Part shown: piece by piece, positions 1,768 to 13,779 of the stretch
Position numbering within the stretch: the stretch's first letter is position 1
Layout: each line of letters opens with the position of its first letter
The notes under the pieces: model-generated
Told to the model about the DNA's origin: nothing
The model's input: the letters and a program-made list of their open reading frames with translations, nothing else
The model's database searches: none
Program-made: the position numbers and the translations under genes
Source: Blastopirellula sp. J2-11
Lineage (GTDB): Bacteria; Planctomycetota; Planctomycetia; Pirellulales; Pirellulaceae
Direction: 5' to 3'
Assembly (NCBI RefSeq): GCF_024584705.1
Contig: NZ_CP097384.1
Span: forward strand, 4,154,001 to 4,218,000
DNA: 64,000 bases

Positions 1768-2721
1768 CTACTTGAACTCGAAATCCCAATCGTCGTCGTC
1801 AACAGCGGAGAAACCAGCGCCGCTGCCGCCAAACGCGTTATCCGACTTGGGATAGATCTCGCCCATGAAACGATAGTCGGTTGAATTGATATCGTCTCCC
1901 CCCAGAATCGGCTCCCCATCCTTGGTAATCTCGCCAGGAAGCTGATAACACATGATCGAAGTCTGATCAGCTGGAGTTCGCATGAGCGACTTCTCATCAA
2001 GCGGCGTCAAGACTTGCTGATCGACCATGGCCTGGCTCCAACCTTGGGTTCGCAGGAAATAGGCGTAGGCTTTGTTCTTGTCGATCCGTTTCACGAGATC
2101 TTTCCGCATATGTTCGTGCGGACATCCGAGCGTGTGCCCCGTTTCATGGCGAACGACGCGCAAGTATTCGCTTTCCGGTGTGTTCATCGTGAAACCTTGT
2201 AGATTCATCGTCTGACGGTTCTGAGGTATCAGCAGCACGTCAGTTCCCAAATAGGACCAATATCCGCCGCCTCCGCGGGAGATGCGAACTTCGCCGGTAC
2301 CGTTCGTTTCAGCGAAACTAATTCCGCTGGTTTGGTTCCACGCGTTCATATGTTGCAAGATTCGGCGACGTAGCTGCGTCGAGGTCGTCTCCATAAAACT
2401 GACCGACAATTGCCGAGGCTGCGATCCCCAAAACTTCGAGGTCAGCACCGCAATTCGCGCCGGAGTCAAGTCAAAGCTCGCCCCCAACGCGGCCATCGGC
2501 CCCATCTGCGGAGCGTTCATCGGATTCACCTCCACCGCGACGTCGGCCGATTTCTCAAGCAGACGAGGGGGGAGCGATTTGGGCGTGCAAACCGGAAATC
2601 TCTCGAACGAAACGGAACCATCATCGTCATCATCCTGGCCGCCCCCCTGCTCTGCTTTATTGGCGAGCTCGGCAATCTTGCGAAGCAACTCATACAATTC
2701 AGTTTTTTTCATCTTCTTCAA
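1768..2721 (-). CDS. Astacin-like M12 zinc metalloprotease, no signal peptide
   Basis: This 317-residue protein carries the complete metzincin zinc signature HETGHTLGCPH (HExxHxxGxxH) and a downstream Met-turn SIMCYQLP, the diagnostic pair of peptidase family M12A (astacin-like). The N-terminus is a short charged helix (MKKMKKTELYELLRKIAELA) followed by a Gly/Asp-rich linker, not a signal peptide, so the enzyme probably acts in the cytoplasm or leaves by a non-Sec route. The C-terminus is again Asp-rich (DDDDWDFEF). It is transcribed away from the papain-type gene at 3064, with a shared 340-bp divergent promoter region. Known astacins are usually secreted endopeptidases with a propeptide; here the role is inferred to be part of a multi-protease cluster. 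Confidence 0.88.
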   Translation of the reverse strand: MKKMKKTELYELLRKIAELANKAEQGGGQDDDDDGSVSFERFPVCTPKSLPPRLLEKSADVAVEVNPMNAPQMGPMAALGASFDLTPARIAVLTSKFWGSQPRQLSVSFMETTSTQLRRRILQHMNAWNQTSGISFAETNGTGEVRISRGGGGYWSYLGTDVLLIPQNRQTMNLQGFTMNTPESEYLRVVRHETGHTLGCPHEHMRKDLVKRIDKNKAYAYFLRTQGWSQAMVDQQVLTPLDEKSLMRTPADQTSIMCYQLPGEITKDGEPILGGDDINSTDYRFMGEIYPKSDNAFGGSGAGFSAVDDDDWDFEFK

Positions 2722-3063
2722 TCCTAACTGGCGTCAACGAACGAGGGTCCGCAATTCAGAGACGGAGCGCCCAACTACGAGATCTTATTAAGCGCCTATG
2801 CGCACATAAAAGCATCAGACCTTCTAGTCCAACCGAAATCAACAACTTCTCGTGCGAGCATCGTTCGAATCCCTTAACTTCACACCTCCCTAACGCGACT
2901 CCCACACCAACTACGCTTCCAGCGCCTCAGTTTGCTTTACACACAAACCAATTTCTCTCATACGTTATCCTTGCACATGTCAGCCCTATCGAATTCACTA
3001 TAAGACGAAATAGCGTCTTAAACTTGCGACCGCCACCCGACTTTACCACGGAGATTCGTCACC
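2722..3063. promoter_or_regulatory. Divergent intergenic region between two protease genes
   Basis: This 342-bp AT-richer stretch separates the leftward M12 protease gene from the rightward C1 protease gene and must carry promoters for both. The inverted pair TAAGACG and CGTCTTA at 3002-3008 and 3014-3020, about 40 bp before the C1 gene, could be an operator. No -35/-10 box is convincing by eye. Confidence 0.4.
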
Positions 3064-5124
3064 ATGGCCAAGCGAAAAGAGATCAAGAAATCGCCGAAGA
3101 CGACTCGCTCCACCGCCGACGAACGACGTCCTCCGGAAGACGAACCGACGTCGCATTTGATCAATCGCAAATTCGATGCGGTGCCTGATCGGATCGATAT
3201 CCGCGACTGGATTTACCAGCCCCATTTGCAACCGCTGCCCGATCAAGTGATAAGTTGCAATGACGTCCCGATGATTCTCGATCAAGGCGTCGAGGGAGCT
3301 TGCACGGGATTTGCGCTCGCCGCCGTGATTAACTTTCACCTCAAGCGTCGTAACCTGAAACGTTTCGTCAGTCCGCGAATGCTTTATGAGATCGCCCGAC
3401 GTTACGACGAATGGCCTGGCGAAGACTATGAGGGTTCATCGGCGCGTGGCGCGGTCAAAGGTTGGATCGCACATGGCGTATGCGAAGAGCATGACTGGCA
3501 ATACCAGGCTGCCGGCATTCAGCATTTCACCAAAGACATCGCCCAAAAAAGCCTGGCCAACCCTGGCGGCTCCTATTATCGCGTCTCCCATCGCGAGGTG
3601 CGAGACATGCATGCCGCGATCGTCGAGAACGGCTGCCTATACATGACGCTCATGGTTCACCAGGGCTGGCAGGAACCGGTTGGCTCTGACGATCCGAAAT
3701 ACGACATCGTCTACGTTGAAAACGGCAATCTGCGGAAACGCCGATTTCCGGTGATTCATCGTCGCGGCCGCGCTACTGGCGGACACGCCGTCGCCATCGT
3801 CGGCTACACGCACGACGGATTCATTATTCAAAATTCGTGGGGTACCGATTGGGGGCACGAAGGTTTCGCCCTGCTGCCGTACGAAGACTACTTGCTGCAC
3901 GCGACCGACGTCTGGGTGGTTCAGTTGGGCGTTCCAGTACGCCTGAATCTGTGGGAGCAAGCTCAGGGCGCCGACGTTTCCTCCGGGCTTCACCGCGCGG
4001 CGGCGGCGATTCCGCTAGAGGCGATCCGTCCTTACGTCATCAATCTTGGAAACAACGGCGAACTCTCTTCGACCGGACGCTATTGGACCACTTCGGAAGA
4101 TATCGATCGACTCATCACCAAAGAGATTCCCGAACAGACGAAAGACTGGGACAAGATTCGGATCCTCCTCTATCTGCACGGAGGCCTGAACAGCGCTGAC
4201 TATAGCGCTCGCCGCGTCATATCCTACAAGAACAAGATGCTGGCCAATCAAATCTATCCCTTGAATATCATGTGGGAGACCGGCTTTCAGGAGACCCTGC
4301 TGCATGCTTTTGAAGATTTATTCGTCGACGCCGACGATCGGGCTACAGGGCCTGCCGCCTGGATAAAGCGGTTTCGCGAAGGACTATTGGAAGCCAAAGA
4401 CCGTTCGATCGAGATGACCGTCGCACTTCCGGGAACGGCGTTGTGGGACGAAATGAAGGAAAACGCGAAACTCGCATCAAGACACCCCAAGGCGAAGGGG
4501 GGAATGCAGATCCTTTCCAAGCGGGTGGCGGACCTTCTCAAGAGTCTCGGCGATAAGGTAGATTCGTCGCCCGAACTCCACGTAATCGGTCATAGTGCAG
4601 GCGCCATATTCGCCGCTTATGCCCTTGACGAAATGGCCAAGTCAGGCGTTCCACTGAAGTCGATACAGCTGTTCGCACCGGCGATTACCGTCGAAGAATT
4701 CAAGAAGTTAGTCGTTCCCCATATCGAAAACAAAGACTGTCCGTTACCGACGCTCTACCTGCTCAGCGACGCCGGCGAGCGGGACGACACGGTGGGGCCC
4801 TACGGAAAATCGCTGCTCTACCTGGTAAGCAACGCATTCGAAGGAAAACGTGAGACGCCGCTACTGGGGATGCAACGGTTTGTGCAGCCGACCGAAGATG
4901 CTACCGAATATGTCGACCCTATGATGAACGTGCTCTTCTCTAAGAAGGTCGATGAACTCTGCAGTGTGGTTATCAGCGGCGCCGACGGCAAGCCAGGCGA
5001 GCGATCGCAGAGCAACTCACACGGCGGCTTCGACGACGATCCCGCCACGCTCAACTCGGCCCTGTATCGCATTCTGCGAACGGAGCCGAAACACAAATTC
5101 GAGGTTCGTGACCTTCAGTTTTGA
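3064..5124 (+). CDS. Papain-like C1 peptidase fused to alpha/beta hydrolase
   Basis: The 686-residue protein has two enzymes in one chain. Residues about 35-290 are a papain-fold C1 peptidase: oxyanion/nucleophile region DQGVEGACTGFA with Cys80, general base His241 in GGHAVAIVGY, and Asn257 in IQNSWGTDWG. Residues about 320-640 are an alpha/beta hydrolase: oxyanion strand LLYLHGGLNS near 368-377 and nucleophile elbow GHSAG with Ser511. There is no signal peptide; the first 30 residues are Lys/Arg/Glu-rich and probably disordered. A weak GGAG lies about 11 bases before the ATG. Both families are well known separately; the fusion, next to an M12 protease and near a metacaspase, suggests a regulated intracellular hydrolase. 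The substrate is unknown. Confidence 0.85.
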   Translation: MAKRKEIKKSPKTTRSTADERRPPEDEPTSHLINRKFDAVPDRIDIRDWIYQPHLQPLPDQVISCNDVPMILDQGVEGACTGFALAAVINFHLKRRNLKRFVSPRMLYEIARRYDEWPGEDYEGSSARGAVKGWIAHGVCEEHDWQYQAAGIQHFTKDIAQKSLANPGGSYYRVSHREVRDMHAAIVENGCLYMTLMVHQGWQEPVGSDDPKYDIVYVENGNLRKRRFPVIHRRGRATGGHAVAIVGYTHDGFIIQNSWGTDWGHEGFALLPYEDYLLHATDVWVVQLGVPVRLNLWEQAQGADVSSGLHRAAAAIPLEAIRPYVINLGNNGELSSTGRYWTTSEDIDRLITKEIPEQTKDWDKIRILLYLHGGLNSADYSARRVISYKNKMLANQIYPLNIMWETGFQETLLHAFEDLFVDADDRATGPAAWIKRFREGLLEAKDRSIEMTVALPGTALWDEMKENAKLASRHPKAKGGMQILSKRVADLLKSLGDKVDSSPELHVIGHSAGAIFAAYALDEMAKSGVPLKSIQLFAPAITVEEFKKLVVPHIENKDCPLPTLYLLSDAGERDDTVGPYGKSLLYLVSNAFEGKRETPLLGMQRFVQPTEDATEYVDPMMNVLFSKKVDELCSVVISGADGKPGERSQSNSHGGFDDDPATLNSALYRILRTEPKHKFEVRDLQF

Positions 5125-5252
5125 CGAAGGCCGGTCGAGCAGCAAGTTTGCGGCGAGTCGCGTCTTGTGTCTGGCGGGATTTTCCGGCCACCGATGCTGG
5201 GCTACCAACTCTTGGATTGCTTGTGGTAGAAGCGTTCCCGCTGCCGCGGCAT
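5115..5252 (-). pseudogene. Relic of a tyrosine-recombinase gene (5-prime end only)
   Basis: Read on the minus strand from the ATG at 5252, the sequence gives MPRQRERFYHKQSKSW, then a stop codon, then PSIGGRKIP. The intact integrase at 41679-42677 begins MPRQPKPFYRKQTKSWYCSI and continues AGRQIPLGK. The match includes the start codon and about 25 codons, with a TAC or similar codon changed to TAG. After about 40 codons the similarity stops near the end of the C1 protease gene. This is therefore a truncated, dead copy of the same integrase family, marking an old integration boundary next to the protease cluster. Confidence 0.75.
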
Positions 5253-5480
5253 GAATCGCCGCCGCGAAGCGGAGAAGCAAGAGGGACCACGAAGCGTAAA
5301 TACAATTCTCCAGAGTCAGACTGAGAATCGAATGTGCACACTATCAGATGGGGCCCTGAAAATATGTCACCAATATGTCTCCATTCCGGGCGCCACCTCA
5401 CATGGACAATTGGCTGCCCAAAAATAGCCTAGTTTTTTCATTCTCATCTTTCATCGGTTCAGCAAATTCTCTGCGTCCCG
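5253..5480. other. Intergenic stretch between integrase relic and repeat
   Basis: About 230 bases upstream of the dead integrase start. I see no gene, only the short direct pair AATATGTCACC / AATATGTCTCC near 5361-5380. Confidence 0.4.
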
Positions 5481-5596
5481 AATGGAGCCGGGAATTGCTG
5501 CAACTCTTTGTTTCTCGAGACTTTTTGCGATTTTCGACTCCAAGATTTCCATGACTTGGACGATTTCTGTGGCGTTTCGTGCATTAATTCGTGCAC
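5481..5596 (+). repeat. Left copy of ~116-bp direct repeat (copy A)
   Basis: This stretch aligns without gaps to 13938-14053. The first 17 bases (AATGGAGCCGGGAATTG) and the last 24 are identical, and the middle ~75 bases are diverged but still recognisable (for example TTTCTC, GATTTCCA). The last part (5573-5595) contains the direct repeat CGTGCA-TTAATT-CGTGCA preceded by CGTTT. A near-identical 23-bp version sits at 42688-42710 just before the functional integrase gene. The arrangement suggests an attachment-site or recombinase-binding end of a mobile cassette. Confidence 0.7.
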
Positions 5597-5627
5597 GGAT
5601 ATTTCCCTGGACACTTTTGCCAAAGTT

Positions 5628-5638
5628 GCATCTGGCTC
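5628..5638. repeat. Left 11-bp target duplication of IS4 element
   Basis: GCATCTGGCTC at 5628-5638 is repeated exactly at 7206-7216 on the other side of the insertion sequence. IS4-family elements commonly duplicate about 9-13 bp of target. Confidence 0.85.
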
Positions 5639-7205
5639 GAATGGCACGAGCTTAAAGCCTCCGCCCCAGGATGCGGTAACCGTCGAAAGGTGCTGTCGCA
5701 AGATCTTGCGACAGCAGGTGCTCGTCACTGCAACTTAGCGAGATGATTTGAAAAGACGGCGGAGCTTCGCTGAATTGGTGGTGTAACAATCGCCGTTTCA
5801 GGAGGCCCCGCCGTGTCTGATCAGTTTAACGCTTCGCCGCAGGAAGTTCAAAGCAAGTTCCGTAACGTTTCGATCTTCGTCAGCGAGTTGCTGCTGCCCA
5901 ACGGCGTTGTCACCGCGATCTGTCAAGAGATCGGCTTCTCGTTTCGGCAGCGCATCTATTCGCCGATGGTCGTCGTGTGGATGTTCGTCATGCAGACGCT
6001 GTCAGCCGATCATAGTTGTCAGCAAGTCGTCACTCGTCTCAACGCCTGGCGAATGGCGCAGGGGCTGCCGCGCTGCAGCGGCGACACCACTTCCTATTGC
6101 CAAGCGCGGCGCCGCTTGCCGATTGCATTGTTTCAACGACTGCTCGCTTGGACGGCGCGAAAGTGCGATGAAGCTGGCGTCGGCGATTGGCGGTTCCAGG
6201 GACGCGAAGTGGTCATCGTCGACGGCACGACCGTCACGATGGCTGACACCCGCGCGAATCAAACCGCCTATCCGCAAATGAAAAGCCAGAAGCCTGGCTG
6301 CGGCTTCCCCTTGACGCGGATCGTGCATCTCTTTTCGTTAGCGACCGGCGCGGCGACGATGTTTGCGATGGGACGTTACGCCGGCAAGGAGACAGGCGAG
6401 ACGTCACTGTTGCGAACGCTCTTGTCGCAGTTTCACTCGGGAGAAATCGTGCTCGCCGATCGTTACTACGCCAGCTTCTGGCTGCTCGCTTTATCGGAAC
6501 TGCGCGGGATCGATATCGTGGCTCGCGCGCACCATCTTCGCAAAATCGACTTTCGCCGAGGCTTGCGCCAAGGGGACTGCGATCAGGTCGTGAGCTATTC
6601 GAAGCCGCAGCGGCCGACGTGGATGACGCAGCGGGAATATGAAAGCTACCCGTCGTCGATTCTCGTACGTCACTTGCGATATCAAGTCACGCAGCGCGGA
6701 TTTCGGACGCGTCAAATCACGTTGGCGACGACGCTGCTACAGGCTGACGTTTATCGAGCGGAAGACTTGGCCGATTTGTATCGTCGCCGCTGGCAAGCGG
6801 AGTTGCATATCCGGAGCTTGAAAACGCAAATGCAAATGGACCACCTCCGCTGCAAAAGTCCGGCGATGGTTGTGAAGGAACTTCACTGCCACATGATCGG
6901 CTACAATCTGGTGCGGGCCGCGATGCTGGCGACGGCGTTGAAATTTCGCCTGCCTCCGTGGCGGCTCAGCTTTACCGGAGCGATGCAAGCGATCGAAGAG
7001 TTCGCCGCCGCACTCCGCTGGAACACGAAGCAACAAGAGTCCCAGTGGGAAAACCTCTTGCAAACGATCCGCCAACTGGAAGTCGGCGCTCGCCCTGACC
7101 GGAATGAACCACGAGAACTTAAACGGCGGCCGAAAGCGTATAAACTAATGCAAACGCCTCGAAATCGTTACGCAACAGCGGCTTAGAGTTAAGCTCGTGC
7201 CATTC
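5639..7205 (+). mobile_element. Complete IS4-family insertion sequence, 1567 bp
   Basis: The element begins GAATGGCACGAGCTTAA at 5639 and ends with the exact reverse complement of these 17 bases at 7189-7205. It is flanked by the 11-bp direct repeat GCATCTGGCTC and encodes one transposase. It inserted about 30 bp beyond copy A of the 116-bp repeat, splitting intergenic DNA rather than a visible gene. Intact ends, intact target duplication and an intact transposase point to a recent insertion. Confidence 0.9.
5813..7186 (+). CDS. IS4-family DDE transposase
   Basis: The 457-residue protein shows the IS4-family catalytic set: Asp137 in VIVDGTT, Asp216 in IVLADRYY, and the Y-(2)-R-(3)-E-(6)-K signature at Tyr323, Arg326, Glu330 and Lys337 (LYRRRWQAELHIRSLK). 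Length and the N-terminal helical DNA-binding part fit the family. The start is preceded by AGGAGG in GGAGGCCCCGCCGTG; the annotated start is that GTG. It is the only gene of the element bounded at 5639-7205 and appears functional. Confidence 0.93.
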   Translation: MSDQFNASPQEVQSKFRNVSIFVSELLLPNGVVTAICQEIGFSFRQRIYSPMVVVWMFVMQTLSADHSCQQVVTRLNAWRMAQGLPRCSGDTTSYCQARRRLPIALFQRLLAWTARKCDEAGVGDWRFQGREVVIVDGTTVTMADTRANQTAYPQMKSQKPGCGFPLTRIVHLFSLATGAATMFAMGRYAGKETGETSLLRTLLSQFHSGEIVLADRYYASFWLLALSELRGIDIVARAHHLRKIDFRRGLRQGDCDQVVSYSKPQRPTWMTQREYESYPSSILVRHLRYQVTQRGFRTRQITLATTLLQADVYRAEDLADLYRRRWQAELHIRSLKTQMQMDHLRCKSPAMVVKELHCHMIGYNLVRAAMLATALKFRLPPWRLSFTGAMQAIEEFAAALRWNTKQQESQWENLLQTIRQLEVGARPDRNEPRELKRRPKAYKLMQTPRNRYATAA

Positions 7206-7216
7206 GCATCTGGCTC
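7206..7216. repeat. Right 11-bp target duplication of IS4 element
   Basis: Exact second copy of GCATCTGGCTC directly after the right inverted repeat of the IS4 element. Confidence 0.85.
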
Positions 7217-7729
7217 TTTTTGTTTGTGGCAGGAAGTGACTCCTCGACCGTGGGTTCGAATCCCTTTTCGCCCATCTTTTTTTTACACTTATCTTGCAGT
7301 TTCGCCGCCTTCGAACCTTCCGTTAATCTCGCTGGTCCAGCTTTACTGTACCCATTCTGTATCAAGTCGAAAAAACGCAAATGTCATCTCGTCACCTCTG
7401 AACGGCCATTCTCAAACGAACCAAGAGGACAAGAAAATTTATCTGGCTTAACACCGAAGAGACTTGGAGTTAGCACTTATCGTCGAGATATGCTAACTGT
7501 GACCGATGCAAGTTGACGGCTGAAGCGAAATTATCTCTGGCCGTTCGTTCAATGTCGCTCATTCGAAAATTTGAACGCGCTTTGATACCGCATCACGAAG
7601 CATAGGTCCGGCCCATGCAGGCCCGAGCTGCGATCGCAGCGGCAACGCGTTACGACCTTCCACGAGCATGGCTTGGCTAAGCGACTACGCGAATCAATTG
7701 GCAGATACAACCGCTTTAAGGCGTCACCT
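7217..7729. other. Non-coding stretch with tRNA 3-prime-end-like relic
   Basis: About 510 bases between the IS4 element and the stop of the metacaspase gene. At 7250-7274 the plus strand reads GTGGGTTCGAATCCC then TTTTCGCCCA, which resembles a tRNA T-arm plus the acceptor 3-prime strand, followed by a run of T. No 5-prime half is present. Only three of five T-stem pairs form, so it is a decayed fragment. It resembles the 3-prime end of the tRNA-Val at 42775 (GGGTTCGAGTCCC...TCGCCCA). The rest shows no gene. Confidence 0.45.
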
Positions 7730-9483
7730 TTAATATTGCAAAATTGGCGAGGGACGTGCGATAATGGCCGTTGGTCCGACCACCGTCGCGTTTTGGGGAA
7801 GATTCAAGTCTTCGCGAATGACCTTACTTACTTCGTCGATTAACGCCATCGTACTGAGTCGGAGACGCTTGTCGTTACGCAGCCGTGACCGGCGTAAGCA
7901 ATAGCCAATAGCAAAAGAAAATGCTCCGTAGGCCACTCCGCCATGAAAGTATTCGTACGCTTGCTCATCCATCCTGCAGTCCTGTAAAATGACAGGCATA
8001 TAGGGACCTTTGTGGCCACGATCATTGCGACGTTGGCGGAACTGCGTGTCGGAAGTCGACGTACTGGAAGAGCACGCCCCATGCGAAGCGTCGCTCCATC
8101 TTCTCCCGCAAACGATTCCATTCGATTGGAATCGAGCGTTAGGTCGCCCATTAGCGGCTTCAGTTCTCGCCGCATCCACAACTGTCGTTCAGTATCCCAT
8201 CGCATCGCACGATGGCGGATATCTTCCGGCGGATCGATCCCACGAATCGGGGCACCCGCGCGTGCCTGGCCACCGGCATGGCAACAGTCCAAAATCATCG
8301 TTACTTGGACGGCATAGGGAAGATTGACGTACATTTCGTAGATTTGCTCGTCCGTAACGGCCGAAGATATCGATCCGTTAAAGTCGTACGGAACAAGGCA
8401 TTCATAGATCCGGTCGACTACAGTCTGAGCATTGTAACCAGGCAAGGCGGTACCATGCCCACTGAAATGAAACACAAGGCGATCGCCGTCCTGAACATCA
8501 TGAAACAGCCACTCCAGACGTTCGCGAATACCAGCCGCCGTGGCGCGATCGTTCACGAGTAGCCGAATGTGATCCGGTGAAAACCCGTTCTCCTGCAGAA
8601 CGCTGCTCATGAGAAATACATCGTTGATGGGACCTTGCAAGCAATGCCGAGGATTGGGGTATTCGTTGATCCCAACCAAAAGTGCTCTCGTTGTGGGTTC
8701 CCGTCGCGTCTGTTTTTCTTCCGCCACTAATGTAATGAATTCTGCTTGGTCACGATCCAAGAGCATAGGCCATACACGTTCCACAGTTTGCGGGTGCGCA
8801 AGATATTCCGCAGGATTGTGGTCTCCCCACGAAAGCCATTGGCCAAACGGCGTATCGATCTCGACAAAGGAAGAATCGAATAGACGTATTCGATGGGTAA
8901 ATACATCATCCCAGCGATTGTAGAGGTGATACCATTTCACATCCGTGATCGGTTCGATTCGCCCAGCCATGAAGTTGCCTACAACGAACGGATTGCCGAT
9001 TTGGGAGCCAAACGAAACGAATGCAGCATTCCGAAATTTTGGGCGATCGATCGGGTGCGTCAGAACATCGTAACCTACGAGTGATCCAAGACTATGCCCC
9101 AAGATGACATCTGGCCGCCACCGGTTGATTTCCTTATGAACGGCTTCCCGGAGCTCTTCTCGCAATGCGTTGTTTGCAACCCACTGAACTACCATTCCTG
9201 CGGTCAAACGGGCTTTTTGATTCAGGCCGTCGAATAACCCTTCGGCGGAAGTGCTCTTTTGCCATAGCTGGGTAGCGCCGCTGGCGGCCAGCATCGAAAT
9301 CGCCCGCAGCGTATCCGTGTAGCTGATCGGATAACGTTCAAAAATATGATCGTATTCAAGAAAATTGAAGCTAAATTGGAAGTCGAGGCCACGGCAAGCA
9401 CGACGCATCGCATTCTTCCAGTCCTCTTGCCAAACTCCGCCAGAGGCATGCCCGCCGACGCCATGGAGACATAGAACTCGCAT
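7730..9483 (-). pseudogene. Alpha/beta hydrolase-metacaspase fusion with a frameshift
   Basis: From the ATG at 9483 the protein has an alpha/beta hydrolase (LCLHGVGG at 4-11; GHSLGS with Ser131) followed by a caspase-like C14 domain: ALLVGINEYP at 267-276, FHFSGHG with His343, and ILDCCHAG with Cys401. The main frame then loses sense and stops at 7840. A second frame reaching 7730 carries what looks like the rest of the caspase fold (GPYMPVILQDC, AYEYFHGGVAYGAF), so one base has been gained or lost between about 8030 and 8080. It could be a true mutation or a sequencing error; if corrected the protein would be about 584 residues. No signal peptide. It lies 70 bp downstream of, and on the same strand as, the trypsin-NUC1 gene, so the two are probably co-transcribed. 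Confidence 0.85.
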
Positions 9484-9553
9484 GAGCCATCCGTCTTGAA
9501 AAAGGCCGATCCAAACGCAACTGCACCAGGGTAATGTGGCTCGTGACTATGCA

Positions 9554-11422
9554 CTACAAGACGAGATCGGCGGGACCATTAATGGTGGGGAATGCGAACG
9601 ATTCGACGGATTCGAGCGGATCAAATTCGCGTAAACCATTGAAACTGATGCCGGTTGCCTGCTCGATGACCCGAATTGGCGTTTGATATGTCCTGAAGCG
9701 TCCAATGACAAATTCGAGGTCGTCCATGAATTCCTTCTGACTCAGCATGTAACCAGTCGCTCGAAGTTTATTTCGATACACCATTACGGCGACCTTCCAA
9801 AAGTCATGTGGCAGTGTAGTCCCACGGAAGGACGTGTCGTTTTCCGTAAAGACTGGCCCAGTGAAGACGGTCAGCTTCTGGTCATCCTGGGTAGTATTTT
9901 GCAAGAGGTAATCTTCCAGATCGAGCCATGTCCTTTGATTTAAATCTTGATGTTGAGGTGCGCAATTCGTGTAGTGGAACGTGTCGGTATCGGCTTGCTC
10001 GGCTTCATCGTCCGAACCCCAGACCGGATCAAGTCGGCGGACCATATGCCCTCTGTCCAGTTTATTGCGCACATACAACTCATTGCCATACTGGTGGTCA
10101 CGATCAATCCGGGGATCAAGCTTCCATTGCGTATTTCGTCGACGTAGTAGGACCTCCTGACTGCCGTCTATGTTGACTGCAGTGAAAAACGGCAGACGCC
10201 GTTTCTTGTTCATCACCACCGAAAAATGCGTATAGTCGAGCACGAACTTACTGACGCCGCGGGAACGTTCCCGCCCTTTGACTGGGGCAGCATCGTCGAT
10301 CAAGTCGCCGGTGAGACTTGGAAACGGTACGCGATAGCGGCCTCTTCCCAGAAATGACTCGCTATATCCTTCCCGGTTTTCCAATGATTCCAATGGCAAT
10401 GGCGCGTCATCGCCGCCGACGACTACGGACGACGATCCAGTGATCCGTAAGAGTTGCTGCTTGATCACAGTCATCGGAATCGCAAAATTCTCGGACATGA
10501 AACGACCAGCGAAGTGAAGTCCCACGACTTTGCCGGTTGCTTGATTGAGAACTGGCGAACCACTATTGCCTCCAAGCGTCGAACAGTCATGCGTGAACAC
10601 GCCGTCACGAACATCTGCGATTCGCCCTGGCGCATAGCGTTTGACATTGTAAATGTCCTGGAAAATACGCGCCATCGCCGGGCCCGGATTTCGACGACCA
10701 TCCCAAGCCGGATAGCCGATGATTCCTACATCGGATTGCTCTTCGGCGTCATCCACAGCCAACTCCAAGGGGCTAGGTAAGTCGTTATTCTGCTTGACTT
10801 TCAAAAACGCGATATCTGGATGGGCGGCGCCTGCAGGCGATACGAATAAGATCGACTGAATTTCAATTTCAATATAATCTGCGCGGCGGTGCTCCTCCAG
10901 GAAATCGACCCGCGCTTCAATCGTCGCACCGAATATTCGGCGGAATTGGTACGACATTCCCTGCTGTTCGCTGAAGACTTCGGCGACATGTCGGTTTGTG
11001 ACCAGAACGTTGTCTGCGAGCAACCATCCGGTTCCGATCCATTCATAGTCCGGATGATGCAATAACTCGATCCGGCCGACCGATGGAATGGGGGCTTCAA
11101 TGGTCGCCAAATTGTCTTGAAGACGCTGCCTCAGGCTTGGTAATTGCAGCGATGCAAGTTGAATGCGACCATCTTGGATCAAAAGCGATGGACGGCCTGT
11201 GGCCATTACAATTGCCTCTGAAAAGTAGGCGCTCTCTGGATCGTGCGATTCGGTCGGCCCGATTGGTTCTTCCAGGAATTCAACAATTGCTCGATGGCCG
11301 ATCTGGGTTAGATCCTGGACGCTCTCCATGGCGTCGATTTTTCGACGTTTGTTGTTAAACAATTCATGAAGATCTTCCATTACCGCACGGTCGTCGCGCA
11401 GAGATTGCAAAGGCGTTTTCAT
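9554..11422 (-). CDS. Trypsin-like protease fused to NUC1-type DNA/RNA endonuclease
   Basis: The 622-residue protein combines two domains. An N-terminal charged helical part (1-110) precedes a chymotrypsin-fold protease (about 115-325) with His145 in VTNRHVAEV, Asp203 in HPDIAFLKV and Ser287 in LGGNSGSPV. Residues about 375-600 are a non-specific DNA/RNA endonuclease of the Serratia/NucA type: DRGHM with catalytic His459 and the metal-binding region HYTNCAPQHQDLNQ with Asn495. No signal peptide is seen, unlike secreted NUC1 enzymes. The arrangement suggests a nuclease held in check or released by the protease. It is the first gene of a probable operon with the metacaspase fusion. The family assignment is firm; the biological role is inferred. 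Confidence 0.9.
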   Translation of the reverse strand: MKTPLQSLRDDRAVMEDLHELFNNKRRKIDAMESVQDLTQIGHRAIVEFLEEPIGPTESHDPESAYFSEAIVMATGRPSLLIQDGRIQLASLQLPSLRQRLQDNLATIEAPIPSVGRIELLHHPDYEWIGTGWLLADNVLVTNRHVAEVFSEQQGMSYQFRRIFGATIEARVDFLEEHRRADYIEIEIQSILFVSPAGAAHPDIAFLKVKQNNDLPSPLELAVDDAEEQSDVGIIGYPAWDGRRNPGPAMARIFQDIYNVKRYAPGRIADVRDGVFTHDCSTLGGNSGSPVLNQATGKVVGLHFAGRFMSENFAIPMTVIKQQLLRITGSSSVVVGGDDAPLPLESLENREGYSESFLGRGRYRVPFPSLTGDLIDDAAPVKGRERSRGVSKFVLDYTHFSVVMNKKRRLPFFTAVNIDGSQEVLLRRRNTQWKLDPRIDRDHQYGNELYVRNKLDRGHMVRRLDPVWGSDDEAEQADTDTFHYTNCAPQHQDLNQRTWLDLEDYLLQNTTQDDQKLTVFTGPVFTENDTSFRGTTLPHDFWKVAVMVYRNKLRATGYMLSQKEFMDDLEFVIGRFRTYQTPIRVIEQATGISFNGLREFDPLESVESFAFPTINGPADLVL

Positions 11423-11880
11423 CGGCTATCCAATGGAATGTAAAATTTCGACAGGAAATAATCCTTCCAACATCAAGACTCGAAACTACCACGTCTGGAA
11501 ATAACCTCAATGACTTGATTATTAAGATTGCGATAAGTAACACTCAACCTCAATTTCCAACCCTCTGATCGACATTCGCAAAACCATGGACGAGCTCGGT
11601 GCCAAGACAACTGGCTTACAATGCGAATATCGCAACAAACCTGCGCAGTACTTCCAACCTACGCTGGACATTGCACACGCCAATTGCCACTCCGCAAATA
11701 CGCATTGATCGACTGCGTGTTTTCCAACAAACTCCCCCATTATAGAAATCGTATTTCAACAGAAATCTGAGTCATTGAATTGTCAAAATCGATTTATTAC
11801 ATTTCGAACAAGCTCAATACACAGAAGACTCGCTGCATATTTAGTCCGATAGCTTGCGACTCAAACTTAGGGAGAATGAA
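11423..11880. promoter_or_regulatory. Divergent region between protease-nuclease operon and membrane-protein operon
   Basis: This 458-bp AT-rich gap separates two divergently transcribed units and should hold both promoters. No gene is supported; a 72-codon minus-strand frame inside it has no motif. Confidence 0.4.
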
Positions 11881-12534
11881 ATGGCGCACTTACTGTTGGT
11901 TACTTTGATTCTTACGTCTCAACCCAACGTGCTCTCCAAGTATGGCGAAGCGCCGCCATCCATAGGCGATCCGTATATGCGCGAGGTCGTCGAGTCGTAC
12001 GAAATTCAGATTCCTGAGAAAAAGGTTGTTTGGGAACGTTGTATCGAGCGTTACGGTTTGTTTGGACGCCGTTGCCGCGTGGTCTACCGGAAACGCATGA
12101 CGCAGACCATGAGTTCAGAGACCCGGTTACGCACTGTTCAGGTCGCCGAGTTGGCGCTACAGGGTCAGAGCGGCGCCAAAGAGACCGCGCCGATCGAGAT
12201 TGAGTTAGAGGCGCCGAAAACGGCTGGGGCTATTGCGCTACTGCTGGCAAATGCACTGAACGAAATATTCCCGGACCAGACGTCTCCTTTTAGTCAGATG
12301 ATTCGCACAATAAATGACAACGCTGTCGATTTTCGTTCCGACGTGCCGCTGCCAAATTCGGGCCAAAGCACAGGCTCAGTTGATCTGCAGGTTCGTATCG
12401 ATATTGACCGGTTAAACCGTAGAAAAATTAAGCTTGTCGTTGTGGCGCGAGATAAACTAAACGGTAACAATTCCGCGACGGAAGCGCAAAATCGCGCCGA
12501 CGAGATCGAGCCGCTAATGACGGCGCAACCGTAA
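11881..12534 (+). CDS. Small secreted protein of unknown function
   Basis: I choose the ATG at 11881 because AGGGAG lies 6-7 bases upstream; an ATG at 11854 is in frame but lacks a ribosome-binding site. The 217-residue product starts MAHLLLVTLILTSQPNVLSK, a plausible signal peptide, followed by a segment with two Cys (ERCIERYGLFGRRCRVVYRK) and an alpha/beta mix without known motif. It ends 9 bp before the next ATG, so the two genes form an operon. No family recognised. Its place, divergent from the protease-nuclease operon and inside the same repeat-bounded segment, makes it a possible accessory part of that system. Confidence 0.6.
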   Translation: MAHLLLVTLILTSQPNVLSKYGEAPPSIGDPYMREVVESYEIQIPEKKVVWERCIERYGLFGRRCRVVYRKRMTQTMSSETRLRTVQVAELALQGQSGAKETAPIEIELEAPKTAGAIALLLANALNEIFPDQTSPFSQMIRTINDNAVDFRSDVPLPNSGQSTGSVDLQVRIDIDRLNRRKIKLVVVARDKLNGNNSATEAQNRADEIEPLMTAQP

Positions 12535-12543
12535 GGACTCGAA

Positions 12544-13779
12544 ATGGCAAAGCAAACGCGATCAGGTCAGGACCCCGCGACAGGGGAGGGAAATGGTTGG
12601 CTTGTCGCGGTGGCGATTTGGCTCGAAGGCTTGTTCGCGCGTCGAAACCCTAGCGCTGAGTCATTTCAGGAAGTTTGGCTCAGCAGTGAACCCCACTTGC
12701 AACGGATCGCCGATAAATTTTTCTCTCGCGGTAAACGGCAGAATTTTACGGCGAACATTCTATTGTGCGTGGCTATTGTTTTGGTTTTCATAGGCATGCT
12801 GGCATTCTTATACCCGACAAACTTTTCGGACGCTTCATCAGGCGAAATCGACAATCGTCTTGAAGAACTTCGCCGTGATTTACGCGAGATTTCCGAACAG
12901 GAGACTGACATCGAACAACGCCTGGTCACCCAATCGCAAGTACGAGCCGGTTTGGCGCCTTTCAATGAATTGAAGAATTTTTTGTTCAACCTTAGTTCTG
13001 CCGGAAAACTCGCGGAACAGCGCCCGGGTGATACCGTGTCTCAACGGTTTGTGGACACGAAGCAATTGCTTGTTGCAATCCAGACCCCGCCGGAAAAGTA
13101 TTCACTTGACCTCCGAAATTACTCGTATACCGGCAGTCAGCCCAAGCGGATCGAGGCGTTGTCAATGCAATCACTTCTCGCATTGCGGACGACGATCGAG
13201 GCTGGTGGAATAAATGTACCGACTCTCACGGAGAACGTGGAAAAATTATCGAAGTCGGTTGGCTCGCCGATGCTTGCAGATCAGGCCCTATTTGCAAGTG
13301 CCTACGAGGACCTTGAGGTTCTGGCAAAAGCCTTTCAAAGCGAGGAAGACGCAATAGCTGAACTGCAGCGCCAAGTCGATGCCTTAGGCCAAGTAGCGAC
13401 GCAACGCCAGCAAAAGAAAGAGGAGTTGCAACAGGAGATTGCTCAGGTACTGGCAATTCGGGAATTGGAGCACGCCGCCGGGGTGAACCTGCAAAGTTGG
13501 ATTCCGGTCCTCTCGGTACGCGTTGGTGTGGTTATTTTACTGTTATTTCTCGTGCAAATTTTGCTTGCCACCTATCGGTATTCGATGTCGCTGGGAGCCT
13601 TCTTTACTGCTCGAGGGGACGCGATGCAGTTGGTAAGCGCCGGCGCGGGCAACGAACTCATGAACCGCGAACAGCTCAAAGAACTCGTGCAAGTCCTGGC
13701 GCCTGATCAACTCAAGATCGATCCGGTTGTTTCGCCAGACCAAATCATCGCCAAGGCGGTAGCCAGGGAGGGATCGTAA
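12544..13779 (+). CDS. Two-TM coiled-coil membrane protein of unknown function
   Basis: The 411-residue protein has a hydrophobic segment at about 69-90 (TANILLCVAIVLVFIGMLAF), coiled-coil stretches at about 98-128 and 262-308, and a second membrane segment at about 320-343 (VVILLLFLVQILLATYRYSM). The C-terminal 65 residues are helical and charged. The loop between the membrane segments is likely on one side of the membrane. I do not recognise the family. It directly follows the small secreted protein in an operon and may anchor or sense for the neighbouring cytoplasmic proteases, but that is inference from position only. Confidence 0.7.
   Translation: MAKQTRSGQDPATGEGNGWLVAVAIWLEGLFARRNPSAESFQEVWLSSEPHLQRIADKFFSRGKRQNFTANILLCVAIVLVFIGMLAFLYPTNFSDASSGEIDNRLEELRRDLREISEQETDIEQRLVTQSQVRAGLAPFNELKNFLFNLSSAGKLAEQRPGDTVSQRFVDTKQLLVAIQTPPEKYSLDLRNYSYTGSQPKRIEALSMQSLLALRTTIEAGGINVPTLTENVEKLSKSVGSPMLADQALFASAYEDLEVLAKAFQSEEDAIAELQRQVDALGQVATQRQQKKEELQQEIAQVLAIRELEHAAGVNLQSWIPVLSVRVGVVILLLFLVQILLATYRYSMSLGAFFTARGDAMQLVSAGAGNELMNREQLKELVQVLAPDQLKIDPVVSPDQIIAKAVAREGS

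What the first reader, a model, noticed from the sequence alone, without database searches (positions are those of the whole stretch)
1768..11422. Cluster of four signal-less hydrolase fusions: candidate intracellular protease/nuclease conflict system
Within 9.7 kb lie an M12 metalloprotease, a C1 protease-alpha/beta hydrolase, an alpha/beta hydrolase-metacaspase and a trypsin-NUC1 nuclease. All lack signal peptides, three of four are double-enzyme fusions, and all contain intact catalytic residues. Proteases of these clans, caspase-like proteases and NUC1 nucleases are known parts of bacterial suicide/defence modules, but I know of no described system with this set. Mobile DNA relics flank and split the cluster. 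The inference is a protease cascade ending in nuclease release or cell killing.
Basis: partly seen in the sequence, partly recalled or inferred. Interest (0 to 1): 0.78.

Follow-up and report, generated by a model that had tools for sequence, protein, structure and literature searches.

The report
Intracellular protease-nuclease suicide gene cluster
Four neighbouring genes for enzymes that cut proteins, DNA and probably lipids inside the bacterial cell look like part of a self-destruct system; members of the same enzyme families turn up side by side in unrelated bacteria too, but one of the four genes looks broken here.

Summary
Catalytic residues are present; no N-terminus looks like a signal peptide. 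Two corrections: the caspase p10 half is out of frame with p20, and the transposon between the genes is an intact IS4, not a relic.

Trypsin-NUC1 lies next to abh-C14 in Fuerstiella and near astacins in Bryobacter and Nocardia, and is fused to an astacin in one relative. Three rhizobial plasmids carry caspase, trypsin-NUC1 and either C1-abh or astacin within about 20 kb. All four together were seen only in the window; many relatives stand alone.

The core protein fits the predicted NucA-trypsin conflict system and has the layout of LypC, whose peptidase is needed for lysis in Caulobacter. No sensor was recognised nearby.

Best reading: a mobile accessory suicide or anti-invader module of a known predicted kind, widened by protease-lipase partners, possibly impaired here. 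Function is inferred.

The parts
1768..2721 (-). M12A astacin-like metalloprotease, 317 aa, no signal-like N-terminus; zinc motif at residues 192-203, one Cys upstream of it (Cys45, in PVCTPK; candidate cysteine switch)
   Evidence: Pfam Astacin 1.5e-8; closest solved structure myroilysin 1.7e-27; residues; 48% identical to the Nocardia L128 copy, which lies about 7 kb from a trypsin-NUC1 gene
3064..5124 (+). C1 papain-like protease fused to an alpha/beta hydrolase (C1-abh), 686 aa
   Evidence: Pfam Peptidase_C1 2.1e-10, DUF900 below cut-off; both active sites conserved in the family; matches over both domains in 20 of 391 other genomes of the phylum; 57% in a Microvirga plasmid
5638..7206 (+). 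Intact IS4-family insertion sequence (transposase ORF 5813-7186), 18-bp inverted repeats, flanked by the same 9 bases at 5629-5637 and 7207-7215; separates C1-abh from abh-C14
7840..9483 (-). Alpha/beta hydrolase fused to caspase p20 (abh-C14), 547 aa; ends in an unrelated tail because of a frame change
   Evidence: Peptidase_C14 1.8e-19 over profile 3-130/233; alignment with L060-L062
7730..8179 (-). Frame that carries the caspase p10 half (HKGPY...), out of frame with p20
   Evidence: alignment; local C14 profile match on this frame
9554..11422 (-). Trypsin-like serine protease fused to NUC1 (Endonuclease_NS) nuclease, 622 aa; 70 bp upstream of, and on the same strand as, abh-C14
   Evidence: Pfam; AlphaFold2 model mean pLDDT 84.7, pTM 0.53; spacing

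Best explanation
The cluster is an accessory, mobile, cell-internal suicide/conflict module of the NucA-trypsin kind. Shown by sequence: the trypsin-NUC1 protein belongs to that family, and astacin, C1-abh and (abh-)caspase genes are recurrent partners of it or of each other in other bacteria. Inferred mechanism: the enzymes are kept latent (the astacin possibly by a cysteine switch, the nuclease by its protease partner); an infection signal, sensed by a component not recognised here, switches on trypsin and/or caspase; limited proteolysis then frees the nuclease and the fused lipid-type hydrolases, so that DNA and membrane are attacked and the infected cell dies. In this strain the caspase is probably damaged, so the module may be partly out of use.
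For: Core family: Trypsin_2 + Endonuclease_NS fusion, 262 relatives in the genome collection (80 returned). EAD1, the adaptor that Kaur et al. link to this system, lies in the fetched stretch around trypsin-NUC1 in 7 of 50 genomes, 12 of the 19 EAD1 copies found (placed by hand from coordinates and frame lengths; 0.045 expected). Layout equals LypC (trypsin 1-335, nuclease 354-662; S296, H471, N505) against S287, H459, N495 here. A Paraburkholderia plasmid relative (36% over 96%) follows a 603-aa trypsin protein and a 1031-aa AAA protein, with CBASS genes nearby. Partners: trypsin-NUC1 next to abh-C14 in L080, the only C14 found in that 9.2 Mb genome (0.0006 expected over the 15 loci that I took as planctomycete); next to two C14 in L087; astacin in L084, L085, L128 (0.035 expected, P 7e-6); Trypsin-NUC1-Astacin fusion in L067. 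Astacin beside C1-abh and a patatin gene in L234 (about 0.0015 expected). Plasmids: L259 with hydrolase, trypsin, trypsin-NUC1, two M12, caspase, trypsin-PLD, S8; L271 hydrolase-C14-trypsin-NUC1 in a row plus two C1-abh; L277 trypsin-NUC1, C1-abh, C14; L278 hydrolase-caspase-trypsin/PLD-trypsin; L274 GDSL lipase-caspase, trypsin, C1-abh. Accessory: no full-length relative in the 3 same-genus genomes.
Against: All four together were seen only in the window; in the plasmid clusters the caspase is not the abh-C14 fusion. 0 of 9 other abh-C14 loci (seven full, two more distant; two contigs under 6 kb) have any of the other three nearby; trypsin-NUC1 is near 0 of 20 C1-abh loci of the phylum and catalytically intact C1 proteases near 0 of 50 trypsin-NUC1 genes. 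The M12 relatives at 56-58% have no partner by profile. C14 near trypsin-NUC1 overall is only weakly enriched (2 of 50, P 0.036). Window and L080 abh-C14 are not each other's closest relatives among those compared, and the pair is oriented differently. Six of ten C1-abh plasmid neighbourhoods and two of nine trypsin-NUC1 ones show no partner. The genes are not one operon (strands -, +, -, -). No EAD1 in the genome, and no sensor-type NTPase in the 10 proteins scanned on each side (about 18 kb right, 20 kb left). In LypC the nuclease is dispensable for lysis. In L234 the C1-abh start is not in the open frame. No sham pair of families was run as a control. No experiment exists on these proteins to my knowledge.
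Confidence: 0.6

Rival explanations
1. Coincidence in a mobile-DNA-rich accessory region: trypsin-NUC1 (with its downstream abh-C14) is one suicide unit, while M12 and C1-abh are unrelated accessory genes that landed beside it.
For: M12 and C1-abh are divergently transcribed and separated from the other pair by an IS4; most C1-abh, abh-C14 and close M12 relatives examined stand alone; the closest C1-abh found is from Microvirga (57%) and the closest M12 from Paraburkholderia and Fischerella (56-58%), so they may have come separately.
Against: Astacin with trypsin-NUC1, astacin with C1-abh, and C1-abh with trypsin-NUC1 and C14 recur in other phyla above the chance estimates.
Confidence: 0.22
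2. Programmed self-lysis for release of particles or for development rather than phage defence, as LypABC does for gene transfer agents in Caulobacter.
For: LypC has the same architecture and its peptidase is needed for the lysis that releases gene transfer agents.
Against: LypA- and LypB-like partners were not recognised near the window; gene-transfer-agent genes were not looked for.
Confidence: 0.1
3. Enzymes without signal peptides that are exported by a dedicated machine and act on other cells or on nutrients.
For: 4 of 17 astacin relatives have signal-like N-termini; the closest solved relative, myroilysin, is a secreted enzyme as I recall.
Against: C1-abh, abh-C14 and trypsin-NUC1 relatives mostly lack signal-like N-termini; no secretion or immunity genes were recognised among the neighbours scanned.
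Confidence: 0.08

Closest known systems
NucA-trypsin conflict system (System 3 of Kaur et al. 2020, PMC7159879; named again in PMC8195603)
   Same: Fused or linked trypsin-like peptidase and Endonuclease_NS; further peptidases; EAD1-trypsin neighbours in relatives; predicted proteolytic cascade deploying the nuclease (passages read)
   Different: No EAD1 in the window's genome, no STAND NTPase recognised nearby; partners here are astacin, C1-abh and abh-caspase, which the System 3 passages that I read do not list
LypC of the LypABC CARD-NLR-like system, Caulobacter (PMC13236601)
   Same: Same order and similar size of trypsin and NucA-type nuclease domains with corresponding catalytic residues
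   Different: LypA/LypB not recognised beside the window gene; the LypC sequence itself was not compared
canu caspase-nuclease system and trypsin-nuclease pairs (Tuck et al. 2025, PMC12799240)
   Same: Caspase or trypsin next to a nuclease that it activates (part 1 of 6 and passages read)
   Different: Their nuclease is of the metallo-beta-lactamase type with gating insertions; here NUC1, and no Ig-like domain matched
VMAP ternary systems with caspase plus alpha/beta hydrolase (Kaur et al. 2020)
   Same: Caspase paired with an alpha/beta hydrolase (passage)
   Different: Here fused in one protein; no VMAP, MoxR or vWA match among the neighbours scanned

Membership tests
NucA-trypsin system (Kaur System 3) | Endonuclease_NS and trypsin-like peptidase fused or in one operon | tested here: met
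   protein 5
NucA-trypsin system (Kaur System 3) | Family found in EAD1-bearing neighbourhoods (EAD1 itself optional) | tested here: met
   EAD1 near 7 of 50 relatives; EAD1 is absent from the window's genome
NucA-trypsin system (Kaur System 3) | Additional peptidases (S8, trypsin paralogues) in the locus | tested here: inconclusive
   Window cluster has other peptidase families (M12A, C1, C14) but no S8 or second trypsin by profile in its first 30 kb
LypABC / CARD-NLR | LypC-like trypsin-nuclease protein | tested here: met
   Domain order, size and catalytic residues agree with the published description; LypC sequence not compared
LypABC / CARD-NLR | Adjacent CARD-trypsin-ATPase and NLR-like ATPase genes | tested here: not met
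   No NTPase domain in the cluster's proteins or in the 10 right-hand neighbours scanned; of 10 on the left the only ATPase is an ABC transporter subunit about 18 kb away
canu | Caspase with Ig-like domain activating an MBL-fold pro-nuclease | tested here: not met
   Nuclease is Endonuclease_NS; no MBL or Ig match
Caspase-like peptidase C14 | p20 with His-Cys dyad | tested here: met
   H343, C401; nearest solved structures are metacaspases
Caspase-like peptidase C14 | p10 half in frame | tested here: not met
   p10 in another frame
Astacin M12A | HExxHxxGxxHE and Met-turn | tested here: met
Cysteine-switch astacin (myroilysin type) | Pro-segment Cys that binds the zinc | tested here: inconclusive
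   One upstream Cys (Cys45), motif shared with L073 and L128; predicted model too poor to place it (pLDDT 49.6)

The most novel reading that the evidence does not exclude
An unrecognised class of cell-internal self-destruct loci built on one grammar: signal-less proteases (trypsin, caspase, papain, astacin, subtilisin) fused to or in operon with an attacking enzyme for DNA (NUC1) or membrane lipid (alpha/beta hydrolase, GDSL, phospholipase D, patatin). The rhizobial operon hydrolase-caspase-[trypsin-NUC1 or trypsin-PLD] would be its plainest form and the C1-abh family its newest part: a two-target (membrane and DNA) death programme gated by a cascade of several protease clans.
Probability: 0.4. 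Interest if true: 0.78.

Novelty: new variant of a known kind. Interest (0 to 1): 0.6.

Why it matters
If true, it extends a predicted immune system from 'trypsin plus nuclease' to a multi-clan protease cascade with lipid-attacking partners, parallel to animal death pathways where proteases free both nucleases and membrane killers. It also points to a bifunctional papain-hydrolase family (C1-abh), conserved in both active sites and found in planctomycetes and proteobacterial plasmids, for which the Pfam and NCBIfam scans gave no model covering the fusion, and it gives compact operons (R. gallicum, M. onobrychidis) in which the idea can be tested.

Tried and rejected
Rejected: 'canu' membership (nuclease of another fold). 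Rejected: a claim that all four genes form a fixed system (no second locus with all four among those read). Rejected as evidence: the L082 'C1' protein, which lacks the catalytic Cys and His (sequence; Pfam 0.0087); a local C14 call in L150 that is antisense to NUC1. Downgraded: astacin near C1-abh in L178, because that astacin has a signal-like N-terminus.

Led nowhere: AlphaFold model of the astacin (mean pLDDT 49.6), so the cysteine switch stays a guess; Foldseek of the trypsin-NUC1 model listed trypsin-like folds only in its 50 rows; phages hold no full relative (4 of 50,697 records match, none at 80% cover); a direct comparison with the LypC sequence was not made, no search that could fetch it being left. 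Paper searches listed no paper whose title or shown start of abstract describes astacin or papain-hydrolase partners of NucA-trypsin; subscription papers are mostly not held, and apart from the papers named here no full text was opened.

Gene calls in loci were open frames, not annotated genes.
Full report
WHERE. The window is G000:C1:4154001-4218000 of a single-contig 6.43 Mb genome. Genome G064, listed as same order, has a contig of the same length (6,649,480) as CP043547.1, Planctomycetales bacterium 10988, so I take the host to be a planctomycete.

OBSERVATION. All four ORFs exist as described. Pfam gives Astacin for 1768-2721(-); Peptidase_C1 and a sub-threshold hydrolase (DUF900) for 3064-5124(+); Peptidase_C14 and a sub-threshold Abhydrolase_6 for 7840-9483(-); Trypsin_2 and Endonuclease_NS for 9554-11422(-). 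Catalytic residues are in place. By a hydropathy proxy none of the four has a signal-like N-terminus. M12 and C1-abh are divergent, 342 bp apart; then comes an IS4; then abh-C14 and trypsin-NUC1 on the minus strand, trypsin-NUC1 upstream by 70 bp.

CORRECTIONS. (1) The caspase is split: p20 with both dyad residues is in the 547-aa frame; the p10 half, contiguous in L060, L061 and L062, is in ORF 7730-8179 in another frame. No homopolymer of 5 or more lies at 7901-8200, so an ordinary homopolymer read error is not obvious, but an assembly error is not excluded. (2) The element between C1-abh and abh-C14 is an intact IS4: 18-bp perfect inverted repeats at 5638-5655 and 7189-7206, open transposase, and the 9-mer catctggct directly outside both ends, as expected of a recent insertion.

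DISTRIBUTION. In 97 relatives besides the own genome, abh-C14 over nearly its whole length occurs in 3 (G095, G022, G058) and M12 matches in 4 at E<=0.001; none of the 3 same-genus genomes has a match to trypsin-NUC1, C1-abh or M12 at that limit, and one has weak caspase-domain matches. In 391 other genomes of the phylum: abh-C14 over both domains in 4, and over part of the hydrolase plus the caspase in 2 more; M12 at E<=1e-6 in 10; C1-abh over both domains in 20. The cluster is therefore accessory. On plasmids: trypsin-NUC1 matches in 101 of 72,556 records, 13 at 80% cover; C1-abh in 41, 15 at 80%; M12 in 13; abh-C14 in 152, none at 80%, the 20 rows seen covering mainly the caspase. The window C1-abh is closer to Microvirga (57%) than to any planctomycete found (45% at best), and the window M12 is closest to Paraburkholderia and Fischerella (56-58%), pointing to horizontal transfer.

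WHAT THE CORE GENE IS. The genome-collection scan found 262 relatives of trypsin-NUC1 and returned 80. In L063 its relative stands with EAD1-trypsin, an EAD1 protein without other match, and an EAD1-HEAT protein with sub-threshold NTPase matches; L067 holds a Trypsin-NUC1-Astacin fusion next to EAD1-trypsin. EAD1 was found in 12 of 51 genomes, not in G000; 12 of 19 copies, in 7 of 50 genomes, lie in the fetched stretch around trypsin-NUC1 (L103, L108, L113, L121, L124, L127, L137, placed by hand from coordinates and frame lengths), against 0.045 expected. This is the NucA-trypsin system of Kaur et al. 2020 (System 3; passages read; also named in PMC8195603, passages). A tested protein with the same layout is LypC of Caulobacter (PMC13236601; section 9 read whole; passages): its peptidase Ser is needed for lysis, its nuclease residues are not. 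The Paraburkholderia plasmid relative (36% over 96%) follows a 603-aa trypsin protein and a 1031-aa AAA protein, the order of LypABC, with CBASS genes nearby. Activation of a pro-nuclease of another fold by trypsin or caspase is shown by Tuck et al. (PMC12799240; part 1 of 6 and passages read).

DO THE PARTNERS RECUR? In the 80 trypsin-NUC1 loci (local profiles): abh-C14 next door in L080, two caspases in L087 (confirmed by Pfam), astacin in L084, L085 and L128, a hydrolase-subtilase protein and a C1-like pseudoenzyme in L082, an alpha/beta hydrolase in L105; caspase matches also in loci without the full fusion (L136, L147, L152, L158, L159). Whole-genome counts in 50 of these 80 genomes: C14 in 35 genomes, near in 2 (0.295 expected, P 0.036); astacin in 10, near in 3 (0.035, P 7e-6; two are Bryobacter, so about two events); C1 in 11, near in 0. 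The first look of the genome search missed one of the two L087 caspases, so counts are lower bounds. L080's caspase is the only C14 found in a 9.2 Mb genome; it is convergent with trypsin-NUC1, unlike the tandem pair in the window, and among those compared its nearest relative is L061, not the window copy. C1-abh: in L234 an astacin and a patatin gene lie within 0.4 kb and 4 kb upstream on the same strand (1 of 20 loci; about 0.0015 expected; the C1-abh start is not in the open frame there), C14 in 1 of 20 (L239), subtilase in 1 of 20 (L227), trypsin-NUC1 in 0 of 20. L178, found through another search, has C1-abh and a signal-bearing astacin 3.3 kb apart. abh-C14: 0 of 9 other loci have any of the three partners (L060-L062 by BLAST; L172-L177 by profile; two contigs under 6 kb).

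PLASMIDS. Nine trypsin-NUC1 neighbourhoods were read: one (L259, Bradyrhizobium) has alpha/beta hydrolase, trypsin, trypsin-NUC1, two M12, caspase, a double-trypsin-PLD protein, trypsin and S8; two have S8; one patatin, trypsin and MoxR; one PLD and two proteases; one the LypABC order; one a hydrolase by profile and CHAT; two none. Ten neighbourhoods of C1-abh matches were read (in L278 only the hydrolase part matches) and scanned by profile: caspase in L271, L274, L277, L278; none in the other six, one of which (L273) has an annotated alpha/beta hydrolase 3 kb away. L271 runs hydrolase, C14, trypsin-NUC1 in a row with two C1-abh within 20 kb; L278 runs hydrolase, caspase, trypsin-PLD, trypsin; L274 has a GDSL lipase-caspase fusion. 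Five M12 neighbourhoods were read and scanned: none has the other three; one (L268) has trypsin and two S8. Of the records seen with both trypsin-NUC1-like (60 of 101 listed) and C1-abh-like matches (41 of 41 listed), all 3 have them within 7 kb (Poisson P about 1e-4).

FAMILY NOTES. In the 21 C1-abh relatives aligned, the papain Cys is kept in 20 of the 20 that cover the site, His and Asn in 21 of 21; the hydrolase Ser in 20 of 21 (lost in L239), its His in 21 of 21. Signal-like N-termini (12-residue mean hydropathy above about 1.6): 0 of 20 C1-abh relatives, 0 of 8 abh-C14, 3 of 22 trypsin-NUC1 (start sites doubtful), 4 of 17 astacins. [quoted passage not shown] The window protein has one Cys upstream of the zinc site, in a motif shared with L073 and L128; whether it binds zinc is unknown.

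MECHANISM. Shown: families, residues, neighbourhoods. Inferred: latency, proteolytic relay from trypsin/caspase to nuclease and lipid-type hydrolases, death of the infected cell, mobility. Not identified: the sensor. The module may be partly inactive here because of the caspase frame change.

VERDICT.

Noticed in passing
L253:1095-2228 (G000:C1 about 4144594-4145727, left of the window): Another signal-less trypsin-like protease (Nal1_C match) about 10 kb left of the astacin, beyond two proteins with signal-like N-termini (by eye) and a second IS4-type transposase; may or may not belong.
   Followed up: partly
L271:690-7276, L278:9121-17055: Rhizobial gene rows hydrolase-caspase-trypsin/NUC1 and hydrolase-caspase-trypsin/PLD-trypsin: good compact test systems.
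   Followed up: partly
L262:4965-11869 (Paraburkholderia phenoliruptrix pSYMBR3459): LypABC-like order (603-aa trypsin, 1031-aa AAA protein, 662-aa trypsin-NUC1) several kb from CBASS genes.
   Followed up: partly
L067:7829-10834: Triple fusion Trypsin-NUC1-Astacin in one 1001-aa protein next to EAD1-trypsin and Dyp-peroxidase and PFL-like genes.
   Followed up: partly
L084:5275-6201, L085:11692-12618: Unknown 308-aa gene after trypsin-NUC1, with 40-46% relatives in trypsin-bearing loci of Nostoc and others (L117, L118, L155, L157); no Pfam match.
   Followed up: no
L066:17252-19477: Trypsin fused to Endonuclease I, another protease-nuclease fusion, in a contig with two trypsin-NUC1 genes, a class 3 lipase and a subtilase.
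   Followed up: no
L073:9069-9965: Astacin relative that keeps the CxPK motif but has lost the zinc motif (HHTGH): probably a pseudo-protease.
   Followed up: no
L110:9803-11779: Pseudomonas aeruginosa PA7 chromosome and one P. aeruginosa plasmid record carry a trypsin-NUC1 gene about 42% identical to the window's.
   Followed up: no
window 11854-13779 (+): Two genes divergent from trypsin-NUC1, a 226-aa protein with a signal-like start and a 411-aa protein with two hydrophobic stretches and coiled-coil look (by eye), without Pfam matches.
   Followed up: no
L079:4736-7830 (left of the window): ECF sigma factor next to a Ser/Thr kinase with FGE-sulfatase domain, about 13-16 kb left of the cluster; FGS-type domains are named among effectors in Kaur et al. 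2020.
   Followed up: no
window 1768-2721: NCBIfam's best match for the astacin is 'beta-glucuronidase AbsR1' (5.6e-12, 45 bits against a cut-off of 650); is that family name resting on an astacin-like protein?
   Followed up: no
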